NCBI RefSeq assembly: GCF_001583495.1
Contig: NZ_LQAQ01000062.1
Location: forward strand, 1 to 57,390
DNA: 57,390 bases
Reading direction: 5' to 3'
Origin: Flammeovirga sp. SJP92
Lineage (GTDB): Bacteria; Bacteroidota; Bacteroidia; Cytophagales; Flammeovirgaceae
Below, piece by piece: positions 50,872 to 55,293 of this stretch. Below the pieces are notes generated by a model. That model did no database searches, had not been told where the DNA came from, and worked only from the letters and a program-made list of their open reading frames with translations. Position 1 is the stretch's first letter. Every line of letters starts with the position of its first letter. The position numbers and the translations under genes are program-made.

Positions 50872-50913
50872 TGTCCGTAATTTTGTCCGTGTACGTAAAA
50901 ATGTCCGTAAAAC
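50872..50913 (+). promoter_or_regulatory. Four direct repeats before the methyltransferase start
   Basis: TGTCCGT at 50872, 50884 and 50902, and the variant TGTACGT at 50890, with steps of 12, 6 and 12 bp, most followed by AA. The last unit ends at the ATG of the methyltransferase. Same-direction repeats touching the start codon look like a protein-binding array, possibly for autoregulation. Confidence 0.6.
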
Positions 50914-53127
50914 ATGGCAACAATAAATTATTATTTAGATAAAGAAGATAAAAAAGGATATGCTCCAATTCATATGCGTATCAATTGTAGCGGTTCTCAA
51001 GTAAAAATTTCTACTAGAAGAAAAATTGAACCTAAATATTTCGATAAATCTACCCAAACAGTAATTAATGAATTTGAAAATTCAATTGAGTATAATCATT
51101 ATCTTAATTTCCTCAAGAATAGGGCTGATGAGCTATTAAATCCTTCTTATGGAAAAACATATTCTGAAAAAGAACTAAAAAAAATACTGAACGATCATAT
51201 TGTGAATTATAAAGAGAATAACGAGGTAAATATTATTAGAGAACAACTTTCTCTTTATGGTAAATCATTTAAATTTGTTGACTTATTTGCAGGTGCAGGA
51301 GGATTTAGTGAAGGCTTTTTACAGGCAAAAGCAAATAACAAATTCTTTGATTTTATTGTGGCTAATGATATTAATGAAAATTGTGAGCTGACGCACGTAG
51401 TTCGTTATAATCATCAACTAGGACTTGATGCTCAATTTTTATGTCAAGATATAACTGAACCTGATTTTTTAGACAACTTATTAGAAAAAGTCGGGAAACA
51501 TAAAATTGACGTTGTTTGTGGAGGGCCTCCTTGTCAAAGTTTTAGTTTGGCTGGAAAACGTAAAAAGTTCGATAAAAAAGATGATTTATTTTCTCACTAC
51601 TTAGAAGTAATCAAGGTTTTACAACCTAAATACTTCGTGATGGAAAATGTAAAAGGTATTCTAACTAAAGAAAAAGGCAAAATAAAAGATTTAATATTGA
51701 GGGAGATAAATTCAATTATTGATATCAAAGAAGTTCCTCAATTAACTGCCTTTTTAAAATCTCTAAGACATAAATCATCTTTAGATGAATTTGTAATTGA
51801 TAGCTTAATTAAACGTATTGAAATAGAAAGATTACCTGAATCCAAAAAATCATCAGGAAAAGAAGCCTTTATTAAACATATTGAAGCTAAGTTCAGAAAT
51901 ATCACTCCAAAAATAGTTGATTACCGTACGAGTAAAACAGATGAACGTATAAGTACAATCCGTCATGGTTTTAACATTTTACTTCGTAATAAAGAATGGG
52001 AAAAACTGAAAAGAGATATCATAAAAGAAAAAGATCAATGCAATATTGATAATGACTTTTTTGTTGAGTCATTTACAAACTTCATTTCAGACTTAGGTGT
52101 TGATAATATTATTGAAAAAATTAAAACTGCATTTTCTCAATTAGATGTTCCTGATGCCTACAGTAGTGATATTAATAATATTCTTACTTCTCTTAGAATC
52201 TACACACTTTCTTTTGATGAAATCATTGAATTTTTGAAAGAAAAATGTGATCCTAAACAAACTAAAGAATTAGATGTAATTGTAGATAACATTCGTTTAT
52301 ACCGAATAGAGAAGCCTTTTGTTGCAAATGCTTCCAATTATGGTGTGCCACAAAATCGGGAAAGGGTTTTATTTATTGGATGTAGAAAAGATCAAAAGTT
52401 TATTTCAGAAATTCCTCCAACAGTTTCAGAAGAAGAGAAAGTTACTATTTTTGAAGCTTTGCATGATCTTGACTTCATTGGAAATAATCAAGAAAAACAC
52501 CATTATGAGGAAGTTGATATTACAGCTCAATATAATGGTTCTGCAAAGAAAATGAAGCAACTCATTAAACCAAGAACAATTGATGGAAAACCCAATTCTA
52601 AAAAAGGTAAGACTTTTGCTGAATGGAGTCGTGAAGGTCGTTTATTAGAACAATATCAAAATGCTAATAAACCATTTTACGTAAGAAATACAGAAGCTTT
52701 AGAAAATGGAGAAAAAAACTATGATATTCTTAACAATCATAAAACCAGTAATCAAAATGAAACTGTTGTAAAACGTCTAGAAATAATATTAAAATCAGGT
52801 AGTTATAAAGAGGCACAAATTGAATTAGCAAAGAATAATCTTTCTTCTAACAAACGAAATTATAATGTTCTAAAACCAGAGGAACAAAGCTCTACAATTA
52901 TGACAATACCTGATGATTATATTCACTATAATTCTCCAAGGGCATTAACTGTTAGGGAGATGGCAAGACTACAGTCTTTTGATGACTCTTTTGTTTTTCA
53001 AGGTAAAAGAACAACTGGCGGTAGCGATAGAAAAATAACTGTTCCACAATATACTCTTGTAGGAAATGCAGTCCCTCCATTAATGGCTAAGGCTATTGGA
53101 ATAGAAATATTAAAGAACATCAAATAA
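50914..53127 (+). CDS. Cytosine-C5 DNA methyltransferase with N-terminal integrase arm-type domain
   Basis: 737 aa. Residues 1-100 look like the arm DNA-binding domain of Bacteroidota tyrosine recombinases (MATINYYLDKEDKKGYAPIH, then VKISTRRKIEPKYFDKSTQT). From about 118 it is a cytosine-5 methyltransferase: motif I DLFAGAGGF (Asp123), motif IV GGPPCQSFS with catalytic Cys207, motif VI MENVKG (Glu244), motif VIII GVPQNRERVLFIG (Gln480), motif IX ALTVREMARLQSF and motif X LVGNAVPPLMAKAIG. All catalytic motifs are kept. About 235 residues, mostly helical, separate motifs VI and VIII, far more than in M.HhaI (about 40). The next gene starts one base after the stop. Target sequence unknown. It should mark host DNA in a restriction-like system. 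Confidence 0.9.
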   Translation: MATINYYLDKEDKKGYAPIHMRINCSGSQVKISTRRKIEPKYFDKSTQTVINEFENSIEYNHYLNFLKNRADELLNPSYGKTYSEKELKKILNDHIVNYKENNEVNIIREQLSLYGKSFKFVDLFAGAGGFSEGFLQAKANNKFFDFIVANDINENCELTHVVRYNHQLGLDAQFLCQDITEPDFLDNLLEKVGKHKIDVVCGGPPCQSFSLAGKRKKFDKKDDLFSHYLEVIKVLQPKYFVMENVKGILTKEKGKIKDLILREINSIIDIKEVPQLTAFLKSLRHKSSLDEFVIDSLIKRIEIERLPESKKSSGKEAFIKHIEAKFRNITPKIVDYRTSKTDERISTIRHGFNILLRNKEWEKLKRDIIKEKDQCNIDNDFFVESFTNFISDLGVDNIIEKIKTAFSQLDVPDAYSSDINNILTSLRIYTLSFDEIIEFLKEKCDPKQTKELDVIVDNIRLYRIEKPFVANASNYGVPQNRERVLFIGCRKDQKFISEIPPTVSEEEKVTIFEALHDLDFIGNNQEKHHYEEVDITAQYNGSAKKMKQLIKPRTIDGKPNSKKGKTFAEWSREGRLLEQYQNANKPFYVRNTEALENGEKNYDILNNHKTSNQNETVVKRLEIILKSGSYKEAQIELAKNNLSSNKRNYNVLKPEEQSSTIMTIPDDYIHYNSPRALTVREMARLQSFDDSFVFQGKRTTGGSDRKITVPQYTLVGNAVPPLMAKAIGIEILKNIK

Positions 53128-53748
53128 ATGGATATTGCAGCTTTTAAAAAAGATAGTCTTAATTTATCACACGAAGATGTTGTCCAAAAATATCTTCTTG
53201 ATGGATCATGCTTTTTCTTTGATAAAATAGAAAAAACAAATGAATTCCAATTTAAAAAAGATCTAGCTAATTCTCTTGATGTACATATAAGAGACATTGC
53301 TATAGTTGGTTCAGCAAAACTAGGTTTTAGTATAAAACCTGATAAAGGAACTGAAGGTCTATATTCTTTTAAAGAGTTTGACTTCGATTATTCCAAAGAC
53401 ACAAATAAAAAAAAATCAGATTTAGATATTGCAATAGTTTCAAATACATTATTTGACAACCAGCTAAAAATGATTTATGAATATACTGGAAGTTATTCAA
53501 ACTTAGATCTATTCAGTAAAAAAGGAGGCCGAAATGAATTTGCTAAATACATTTTAAAAGGTTGGATAAGACCTGATTTAGTCCCTGATAATTATAAAAT
53601 ATCAGAAGCAATAAAAGATATCCAAGATAAATATAAAACCCTTTTCAAAAGAGATGTTAATATTGGTATTTATAAAAATTGGTATTATTTCGAAAATTAC
53701 CATATTGAAAACATTAGAAAGATATATTTAAATTTAATAGCAACATGA
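53128..53748 (+). CDS. Nucleotidyltransferase-fold protein of the methyltransferase/DUF262 cassette
   Basis: 206 aa, no signal peptide. It carries the hallmarks of a minimal nucleotidyltransferase: AIVGSAKLGFSI (Gly61-Ser62) and KKSDLDIAIVS with Asp98 and Asp100. The N-terminal part (about 1-55) is helical and predicted to be an extra cap. I know related GSAKLG/DSDIDxAI proteins from defence-like loci but cannot name a family or an activity. It starts at the base after the methyltransferase stop, and the next gene starts inside its stop (ATGA), so the three are translated together. It could modify a nucleotide or tRNA, or be a non-catalytic partner. Confidence 0.65.
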   Translation: MDIAAFKKDSLNLSHEDVVQKYLLDGSCFFFDKIEKTNEFQFKKDLANSLDVHIRDIAIVGSAKLGFSIKPDKGTEGLYSFKEFDFDYSKDTNKKKSDLDIAIVSNTLFDNQLKMIYEYTGSYSNLDLFSKKGGRNEFAKYILKGWIRPDLVPDNYKISEAIKDIQDKYKTLFKRDVNIGIYKNWYYFENYHIENIRKIYLNLIAT

Positions 53749-55259
53749 ATAATAAAAAATTACCTGACAGCATACCAACAACAAGTGTCAAGATAATCGA
53801 AATTTACAACAAAATTGATAATGAATTATTAGAAACACAACCAGGTTATCAAAGAAAACTTGTTTGGAAAAAACAACACAAGTATGCTTTTATTGAAACA
53901 ATTTTAAAGAATTTCCCTTTTCCTGAAGTATATATTGCTAGTTCAGATATTGATATTGATCAAATGATAGCTAAAGAAGAAATAGTAGATGGTCAACAAA
54001 GACTTTCTACTATTGTAGAATATATCAAAGGCTCTGGAGATTTTAAATCACAAAATAAAATTCCTTCATTTAATCAATTAACTCCATCTGAAAAAAAAGA
54101 GTTTTTGAATTACAAAGTTTCGGTTAAAGATTTAAAAGACATTGATAGAGGTATTGTTACAGAAATCTTTCAAAGAATTAATAGTACCGATTATTCTCTA
54201 AATGGAAATGAAAAAAATAATGCTATGTATGGAGATGGTGAAATTTCTATTTTTTGTAAATTATTAGTTGATCCCTCTTTTGATATTGATAAATCAATGA
54301 CAGACATTAGGATTGAAAAATCCGAAAGAGAATTTATTAATTCATTTTTTACAGAAAATGAAGTATTCTCCGAAAATGATATTAAAAGAATGTTTGATTT
54401 TCAATATACAATGTTAATAATTTCCACACTGATTGAAGGTAATTACTTTGGGAGAAGTACAAAAATAAACCAATACCTTGAAGAGTATAATGCAGCATTT
54501 GAAAAGTCGAACACAATATTAAAGTTGCTTTTAAAATCAATTCAAACTATAAAATCTATTGGACTTCCAAAGGAGAGTTATTGGTTTAATAAAGCTAACT
54601 TATTTACATTAATTATCGAACTATCTAAAGTTGATGAAAGTCAACTTAACCTAGAACTATTAATGTCAGCTTTATTAGAATTAGAATCTAAGGTAGATAT
54701 TTACTTTGATGCAGACACTGTTAAAGATCTTGAAGATATTTCAGAAAATGAAAGAAGATATTTTGAAGTCGCTAGACAAGGTAGCCACGAAAAATCTTCA
54801 AGAGATCATAGAGGTCGTGTCATTTCTGAATTAATAGAAAAATGTAAAACTAAAGAGGTATTTGAGAATAACCCTATAAAATCAATTTCAGATTATTTTA
54901 TAGAAAATAATATAGCATTTAGCAGGTTAATTCCCACAAAAACAGGTCTTTCTAAATCCATAATGGATGCTACACTTCCAGTTCGTGATTTTTTTAAAAA
55001 TACAAACTTTCATGATTATGACTCACAATCAAAAGGACCTGAACATAAAATTTCAAAAAAAGCAATCATTATTGATAATACTCAAGATGAAGTTGACGTA
55101 ACATTATATAAAGCTAATAAAAGAGGAGATACTAGAATATGGTTCAGCGGATTAAAAGAATACTGTAACGCTAATGATACCTTATTTCTATTCTGGAAGA
55201 ATAATAGCCTTTATGTTATAAATTCAAATAAATTTGGTATTGACAAGCTTCCAAAATAA
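53745..55259 (+). CDS. DUF262 (ParB/Srx-fold) protein with unknown C-terminal domain
   Basis: 504 aa. Residues 1-200 form a DUF262 domain with its known signatures: QRKLVW (36-41), VDGQQRLSTI (DGQQR at 82-86) and IFQRINS (142-147). In GmrSD and other defence proteins this domain is an NTP-dependent sensor or nuclease subunit. Residues about 200-390 are helical. Residues about 395-504 form a separate domain with PVRDFFKNTNFHDYDSQSKG and TLYKANKRGDTRIWFSGLKE; the latter part vaguely recalls effector or DNA-binding domains of type II restriction enzymes, but I cannot name it. No HNH or PD-(D/E)XK motif is obvious. It overlaps the upstream gene by 4 bases. Confidence 0.8.
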   Translation: MNNKKLPDSIPTTSVKIIEIYNKIDNELLETQPGYQRKLVWKKQHKYAFIETILKNFPFPEVYIASSDIDIDQMIAKEEIVDGQQRLSTIVEYIKGSGDFKSQNKIPSFNQLTPSEKKEFLNYKVSVKDLKDIDRGIVTEIFQRINSTDYSLNGNEKNNAMYGDGEISIFCKLLVDPSFDIDKSMTDIRIEKSEREFINSFFTENEVFSENDIKRMFDFQYTMLIISTLIEGNYFGRSTKINQYLEEYNAAFEKSNTILKLLLKSIQTIKSIGLPKESYWFNKANLFTLIIELSKVDESQLNLELLMSALLELESKVDIYFDADTVKDLEDISENERRYFEVARQGSHEKSSRDHRGRVISELIEKCKTKEVFENNPIKSISDYFIENNIAFSRLIPTKTGLSKSIMDATLPVRDFFKNTNFHDYDSQSKGPEHKISKKAIIIDNTQDEVDVTLYKANKRGDTRIWFSGLKEYCNANDTLFLFWKNNSLYVINSNKFGIDKLPK

Positions 55260-55293
55260 AAATCATTATATTTTTCTACATTATACAAAAAAA

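What the first reader, a model, noticed from the sequence alone, without database searches (positions are those of the whole stretch)
50914..55259. Three-gene cassette: arm-domain DNA methyltransferase, nucleotidyltransferase-fold protein and DUF262 protein
The sequence shows three genes with a 0-bp gap and a 4-bp overlap: a complete cytosine-C5 methyltransferase, a 206-aa protein with GS..DxD nucleotidyltransferase marks, and a DUF262 protein with a C-terminal domain I cannot name. C5 methyltransferases with a coupled nuclease are restriction-modification systems, and DUF262 occurs in GmrSD-type defence (established). But there is no standard restriction nuclease here, and a nucleotidyltransferase-fold partner is not part of the restriction-modification types I know. 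The inference is a modification-guided defence or abortive system in which DUF262 senses or cuts unmodified DNA and the nucleotidyltransferase is an effector or signal maker. It sits beside a transposase/REP hot spot.
Basis: partly seen in the sequence, partly recalled or inferred. Interest (0 to 1): 0.9.

Follow-up and report, generated by a model that had tools for sequence, protein, structure and literature searches.

The report
Restriction system that swapped its nuclease
This looks like a bacterial restriction-modification system in which the DNA-cutting part was replaced by a two-protein module with a nucleotidyltransferase, so that unmethylated invader DNA would probably trigger a toxin-like enzyme instead of being cut.

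Summary
The three genes are real, at the stated coordinates. The unnamed C-terminal domain of the DUF262 protein is a B3-type DNA-recognition domain, homologous to the N-terminal domain of MvaI/BcnI-type nucleases paired with the same methyltransferase family. Relatives form a graded series: methyltransferase + B3-nuclease (L196); methyltransferase + NT + DUF262 + B3-nuclease (L004, L012); methyltransferase + NT + DUF262-B3, nuclease gone (window, nine genome loci, one viral contig). The core is the NT-DUF262 pair, adjacent in 79 of 79 genome loci and 15 of 15 viral loci, in most of them without a methyltransferase beside it. DUF262 relatives often carry HEPN toxins in the partner slot, which points to NT as executor. 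The cassette is absent at this spot from eight congeners, one of which carries type II CBASS there and another SIR2/NACHT-type genes. Best reading: methylation-gated defence derived from a type II restriction-modification system, with a nucleotidyltransferase executor. Protection, target site and NT substrate are untested. I saw no description of an NT-DUF262 pair.

The parts
50872..50913 (+). TGTCCG repeat array (copies at 50872, 50884, 50902) directly before the methyltransferase start; probable operator bound by its Arm domain (inferred)
   Evidence: array present before 8 of 8 Arm-type methyltransferases examined, no TGTCCG before 4 of 4 non-Arm ones; two further genomes found by the repeat alone, both before an Arm-type methyltransferase
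50914..53127 (+). C5 cytosine DNA methyltransferase, 737 aa, with N-terminal Arm-DNA-bind_5 domain (residues 10-75) and catalytic C207
53128..53748 (+). NT: nucleotidyltransferase-like protein, 206 aa, GS (61-62) and DxD (98, 100); probable executor
53745..54842 (+). DUF262 core of the third protein (residues 1-366), ParB/BrxU/SspE-like, DGQQR at 82-86; probable nucleotide-driven switch
54864..55250 (+). B3 DNA-recognition domain of the third protein (residues 374-502), homologous to residues 8-134 of the B3-MvaI nuclease of L004
55284..55289 (.). Right-hand boundary: homology with eight congeners resumes here

Best explanation
It is a defence cassette descended from a type II restriction-modification system in which an NT-DUF262 module took over the job of the nuclease. 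The C5 methyltransferase marks a short site in host DNA (inferred from family). The B3 domain fused to DUF262 binds the same site when it is unmethylated, as on incoming phage DNA (inferred from its homology to the recognition domain of B3-MvaI nucleases that are paired with the same methyltransferase family). Binding switches the nucleotide-driven DUF262 domain, which activates or releases its partner NT (inferred). NT then executes by transferring nucleotides onto a host target, most likely tRNA or another part of translation, and stops growth before the phage matures (inferred; NT holds the slot that HEPN toxins hold in sister systems). Shown here, by comparison only: gene order, the B3 fold, the series M-R, M-NT-DUF262-R, M-NT-DUF262-B3, the NT-DUF262 pairing, and the location at a spot where congeners carry other defence genes.
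For: NT-DUF262 adjacent in 79 of 79 genome loci and 15 of 15 viral loci. B3 fold and homology to B3-MvaI nucleases. All 12 B3-bearing loci (window included) have a C5 methyltransferase directly upstream of NT, in pieces in L013, against 2 of 68 other loci with one adjacent on the same strand. Graded series L196, L004/L012, window and matching tree. HEPN in the partner slot of DUF262 relatives, and a DUF262-like + Rx4H-motif pair in the same M-R slot in L195. A second methyltransferase-NT-DUF262 trio with another methyltransferase in L078 and L144. Congeners carry type II CBASS or SIR2/NACHT-type genes at the same spot.
Confidence: 0.5

Rival explanations
1. DUF262-B3 is itself the restriction enzyme (a ParB-like DNA cutter or nicker), and NT is its regulator or antitoxin, for example silencing it by AMPylation as MNT does to HEPN in type VII toxin-antitoxin systems.
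Against: In BrxU/GmrSD the nuclease is the DUF1524 domain (PMC8565348, passages), absent here. HEPN, a toxin, takes the partner slot in relatives. The NT matches are weak.
Confidence: 0.22
2. NT is a signal maker: on sensing unmethylated DNA it makes a small nucleotide that acts on DUF262 or a host protein, as in CBASS or Pycsar.
For: NT signature; a distant NT relative in L102 lies two genes from a protein with a CAP12/Pycsar-type TIR domain.
Against: No PADLOC cyclase model matches NT at E up to 1; no effector gene in the cassette; the second distant relative L103 has no such TIR gene within the stretch held.
Confidence: 0.12
3. A toxin-antitoxin or addiction module that hitch-hikes on R-M genes and maintains mobile DNA, with little role against phages.
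For: Pair on a small Cronobacter plasmid and on viral contigs; foreign base composition of the cassette.
Against: Fusion of DUF262 to a restriction recognition domain in two orders, the tie of B3 to the methyltransferase, and the location shared with CBASS.
Confidence: 0.1
4. A decayed R-M system: the nuclease was lost by an accidental fusion and what remains is not functional.
For: The nuclease domain is missing.
Against: The fused form is one well-supported clade found in several genera with the NT and DUF262 signatures invariant; a B3-DUF262 fusion arose again in the reverse order.
Confidence: 0.05

Closest known systems
Type II R-M systems with a B3-MvaI/BcnI nuclease (UbaLAI-like architecture; architecture recalled, B3 domain titled so in PDB 5o63)
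   Same: Same methyltransferase family and same B3 domain family; L196, L104 and L105 are such systems
   Different: The window has no MvaI/BcnI nuclease; its B3 domain is fused to DUF262 and an NT gene is added
DUF262 + HEPN systems: HEPN MAE_28990 operons with ParB and DNA methylase (PMC3710099) and PD-T4-2, which PMC10952713 lists under both DUF262 and HEPN
   Same: DUF262 with a tightly linked partner gene; sometimes a C5 methyltransferase upstream, as in L168
   Different: NT instead of HEPN, NT lies before DUF262 instead of after it, and B3 domain at the C-terminus
GmrSD / BrxU / SspE
   Same: DUF262 domain with DGQQR
   Different: No DUF1524 nuclease domain; paired with a methyltransferase and NT
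Menshen (NsnA) and ptuXYZ (PMC11980606, passages)
   Same: DUF262 protein; PADLOC NsnA matches nearly the whole DUF262 core (7.9e-26); ptuXYZ also couples DUF262 to a translation-type toxin
   Different: No ATPase partner in the cassette
MenT/AbiEii and MNT nucleotidyltransferases
   Same: GS..DxD signature; MenT toxins modify tRNA (PMC10435456, passages), MNT AMPylates HEPN (PMC11586414, passages)
   Different: NT reaches no family cut-off (MntA 15.1 bits against 60) and pairs with DUF262

Membership tests
Type II restriction-modification system | C5 DNA methyltransferase with intact motifs | tested here: met
   PF00145 6.9e-55; PPC C207, ENV, GNA present
Type II restriction-modification system | cognate restriction nuclease in the cassette | tested here: not met
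   No nuclease family match among the three proteins; MvaI/BcnI domain present in L004, L012, L195, L196 but absent here
Type II restriction-modification system | methyltransferase and restriction side read the same site | not testable with these tools
   Only indirect: same B3 and methyltransferase families as complete systems; B3 does not track methyltransferase type
GmrSD-type (type IV) restriction | DUF262 domain with DGQQR | tested here: met
   GmrSD_N 1e-18; DGQQR at 82-86
GmrSD-type (type IV) restriction | DUF1524 nuclease domain | tested here: not met
   No such match at E up to 1; C-terminal part is B3
Menshen | NsnA-like DUF262 protein | tested here: met
   PDLC03877 7.9e-26, residues 10-367
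Menshen | NsnB ATPase partner | tested here: not met
DUF262-HEPN systems | HEPN partner | tested here: not met
   NT has no HEPN match at E up to 1
Type VII MntA antitoxin | reaches the MntA family cut-off | tested here: not met
   15.1 bits against 60
CBASS | CD-NTase | tested here: inconclusive
   No PADLOC cyclase model matches NT at E up to 1, but NT is divergent and fold matches are weak
CBASS | effector (Cap) gene beside it | tested here: not met
   Cassette holds only methyltransferase, NT and DUF262-B3
B3 domain of restriction enzymes | B3 fold | tested here: met

The most novel reading that the evidence does not exclude
A restriction-modification system without a restriction nuclease: self is marked by 5mC, unmarked DNA is read by a B3-DUF262 switch protein, and the response is nucleotidyl transfer (probably on tRNA) by a dedicated enzyme. 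NT-DUF262 would be an undescribed defence module found across phyla that repeatedly joins methyltransferases and R-M recognition domains, interchangeably with DUF262-HEPN modules.
Probability: 0.45. Interest if true: 0.85.

Novelty: new variant of a known kind. Interest (0 to 1): 0.75.

Why it matters
It would show how a DNA-cutting immune system turns into a toxin-triggering one, with the steps still visible in living genomes. It points to an NT-DUF262 pair found across phyla for which I saw no description, and it makes the role of DUF262 testable: with methyltransferase and B3 domain in hand, the trigger should be one defined unmethylated sequence. It also suggests DUF262 as a general switch with exchangeable executors.

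Tried and rejected
Rejected: a fixed three-gene system (most NT-DUF262 pairs have no adjacent methyltransferase). Rejected: Menshen (NsnA matches, no NsnB). The NsnB genome search rang in 198 of 198 genomes and in all 14 controls, because the model hits ATPases in general, so it is useless as a count.

Led nowhere: PDB sequence searches with NT (none) and DUF262 (none); with the B3 alignment only chance-level hits and no B3 protein; with the DUF262 alignment DndI and BrxU weakly. Foldseek with the NT model gave nothing below E 1. NT in phage records: no match.

Defence-gene test by PADLOC on nearest genes (136 of the 139 listed; I dropped the L004 and L012 nucleases and the L013 methyltransferase fragment, and the script had already left out methyltransferases with E below 1e-30) against outer genes (116): both lists held defence-type matches, only 25 of 119 and 25 of 92 families are shown, and I see no clear excess. 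Inconclusive.

Co-divergence of methyltransferase type and B3 was looked for and not found. The genomic context of the Pectobacterium reverse fusion (P0138) could not be fetched (one search found none in viral contigs; two searches gave only relatives). The repeat pattern occurs once in the own genome, but its reversed control also once; in 198 genomes it gave 13 places against 5 for the control. The claim rests on conservation before the gene. An early note miscounted the 18 B3 proteins as 10 + 8; one search shows 6 + 5 + 7. The Fisher test used 2 of 67 other loci; 2 of 68 is right.

Literature: searches (18 returned only unrelated papers). The library holds CC0, CC BY and CC BY-SA papers only. 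Millman et al. 2022 is not held, so Menshen beyond the PADLOC models and PMC10952713 is recalled. The UbaLAI paper is not held: I saw its title in a reference list; its B3 + MvaI-like layout is recalled.
Full report
1. The observation. Three genes lie at 50914-53127, 53128-53748 and 53745-55259. The first is a C5 methyltransferase with an N-terminal Arm-DNA-bind_5 domain; the second (NT) matches nucleotidyltransferase families only below their cut-offs; the third is a DUF262 (GmrSD_N) protein. Across 77 aligned NT sequences only G61, S62, G66, S97, D98 and D100 are invariant; no third acidic residue is.

2. The core is a pair. A scan of the genome collection with an NT alignment found 111 relatives; the best 80 were kept, as 79 loci. 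NT is followed directly by DUF262 on the same strand in 77 of the 77 loci where my script called an NT gene (split in L013), and tblastn shows the same order in the other two, L047 and L071. The scan used NT peptide patterns, so it samples near relatives. By record title the loci include Bacteroidota, Proteobacteria, Cyanobacteria, Actinobacteria, Firmicutes, Poribacteria and Planctomycetota. In viral contigs the count is 15 of 15. One of 72,556 plasmid records carries a relative, a 6.2-kb Cronobacter plasmid with the pair 12 bp apart; 50,697 phage records gave none. In 395 genomes drawn from the phylum, NT was found in 5 including the window's own. Of the other four, L100 is paired with DUF262; the distant relatives L101-L103 are not, in the stretches held.

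4. Descent from a type II R-M system. In L004 and L012 the DUF262 protein is short and the next gene is B3 + MvaI_BcnI nuclease (Pfam 5.6e-79 and 3e-74). In L196 the Arm-type methyltransferase is followed 6 bp later by a B3-MvaI nuclease with nothing between. Window residues 5-364 align to the L004 DUF262 protein (55%) and residues 374-502 to residues 8-134 of the L004 nuclease (37%), so the window protein looks like a fusion of two such neighbours with the nuclease part lost. In a FastTree tree of NT + DUF262, rooted at midpoint, the fused form is one clade (1.00) with L004 as sister (0.95), inside a 16-tip group (0.98) that also holds L012, L005, L002, L003 and L007; the deepest position of L012 there is weak (0.56).

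5. Methyltransferase coupling. All 12 B3-bearing loci (window included) have a C5 methyltransferase directly upstream of NT; in L013 it is in pieces. Of the 68 other loci, 2 have a methyltransferase recognisable with the window's one adjacent on the same strand: L078 upstream, L005 downstream. Some loci end too near NT to show an upstream gene. Fisher (with 67 instead of 68) gave 1.8e-12, ignoring relatedness. The methyltransferases are of two types: Arm type, and a type without Arm, about 30% identical to the first. The second type in L001, L009 and L010 is 43-44% identical over full length to the Moritella methyltransferase beside a B3-MvaI nuclease, and the L013 piece 50% over 178 residues. 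B3 similarity does not track methyltransferase type, so either both types share a site or B3 adapts quickly. L009 and L013 have Vsr genes close by, which fits real 5mC. L078 (Clostridiaceae) and viral contig L144 show another C5 methyltransferase directly before NT-DUF262, without B3.

7. Location. Eight same-genus genomes have the flanking PfaD-like gene (89-99% identical). None has a close DUF262 relative; one has two weak matches (about 1e-4) elsewhere. None of the eight fetched stretches matches the cassette, and homology resumes at 55284-55289 in all eight. At this spot G397 (L119) carries a type II CBASS set (cyclase, E1-E2, JAB, SAVED effector) and G399 (L117) SIR2_2 and NACHT genes. 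The scanned genes of L118, L121 and L122 have no match, one in L124 has a weak PADLOC match, L120 and L123 were not scanned, and L118 is short. The cassette has 28.0% G+C against 34.4% in window 1-50000 and 43.0% in the PfaD-like gene.

8. Control of the methyltransferase. TGTCCG repeats lie just before 8 of 8 Arm-type methyltransferases examined and before none of 4 others. TGTCCGTNNNTTTGTCCG in 198 genomes gave 13 places in 10 genomes, 5 for the reversed control. The two places with TGTCCGTAAATTTGTCCG (G029, G016) precede Arm-type methyltransferases; the other ten outside the window do not. I infer that the Arm domain binds this array and controls its own gene. L010 and L130/L145 have a helix-turn-helix gene upstream instead.

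9. Standing. It is not a member of type II R-M (nuclease absent), GmrSD (DUF1524 absent), Menshen (partner absent) or DUF262-HEPN (HEPN absent), but it would work most like a methylation-gated DUF262 + toxin system. The nearest printed precedents I saw are a table line of PMC3710099 (HEPN MAE_28990 'in operon with a ParB nuclease and DNA methylase genes') and PD-T4-2, listed under DUF262 and under HEPN in PMC10952713 (passages). None of the listings, nor the passages read, showed an NT-DUF262 system.

Noticed in passing
L102:804-3134, L103:1465-2791: Distant NT relatives lie beside a short transglycosylase-family gene instead of DUF262 (Transgly 6.7e-28 in L102, similar-looking in L103); L102 also has a CAP12/Pycsar-type TIR gene (3.3e-38) downstream. 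Possibly another NT-based defence system.
   Followed up: partly
L146:3917-4339 and L147:702-1124: Two viral contigs encode a stand-alone 140-aa protein with a B3-like match (2.6e-13); possibly a phage protein related to the recognition domain.
   Followed up: no
L127:676-6694 (Phaeobacter gallaeciensis plasmid pP75_g): A C5 methyltransferase + B3-MvaI R-M system lies about 1.7 kb from a DUF262-HEPN pair on one plasmid.
   Followed up: partly
L128 (E. coli plasmid pLR-27_3, 3948 bp): A very small plasmid whose largest genes are DUF262 and HEPN.
   Followed up: no
window 50872-50913: TGTCCG repeat array conserved before Arm-type methyltransferases; likely self-control of the gene by its Arm domain.
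   Followed up: partly
L117, L119 (left of the PfaD-like gene): The stretch next to the PfaD-like gene is an exchange site for defence genes in this genus.
   Followed up: partly
L005:10001-15227: NT-DUF262 followed by two C5 methyltransferases and an HNH-domain protein (HNH_2 1.8e-11), perhaps another R-M system joined to the pair.
   Followed up: partly
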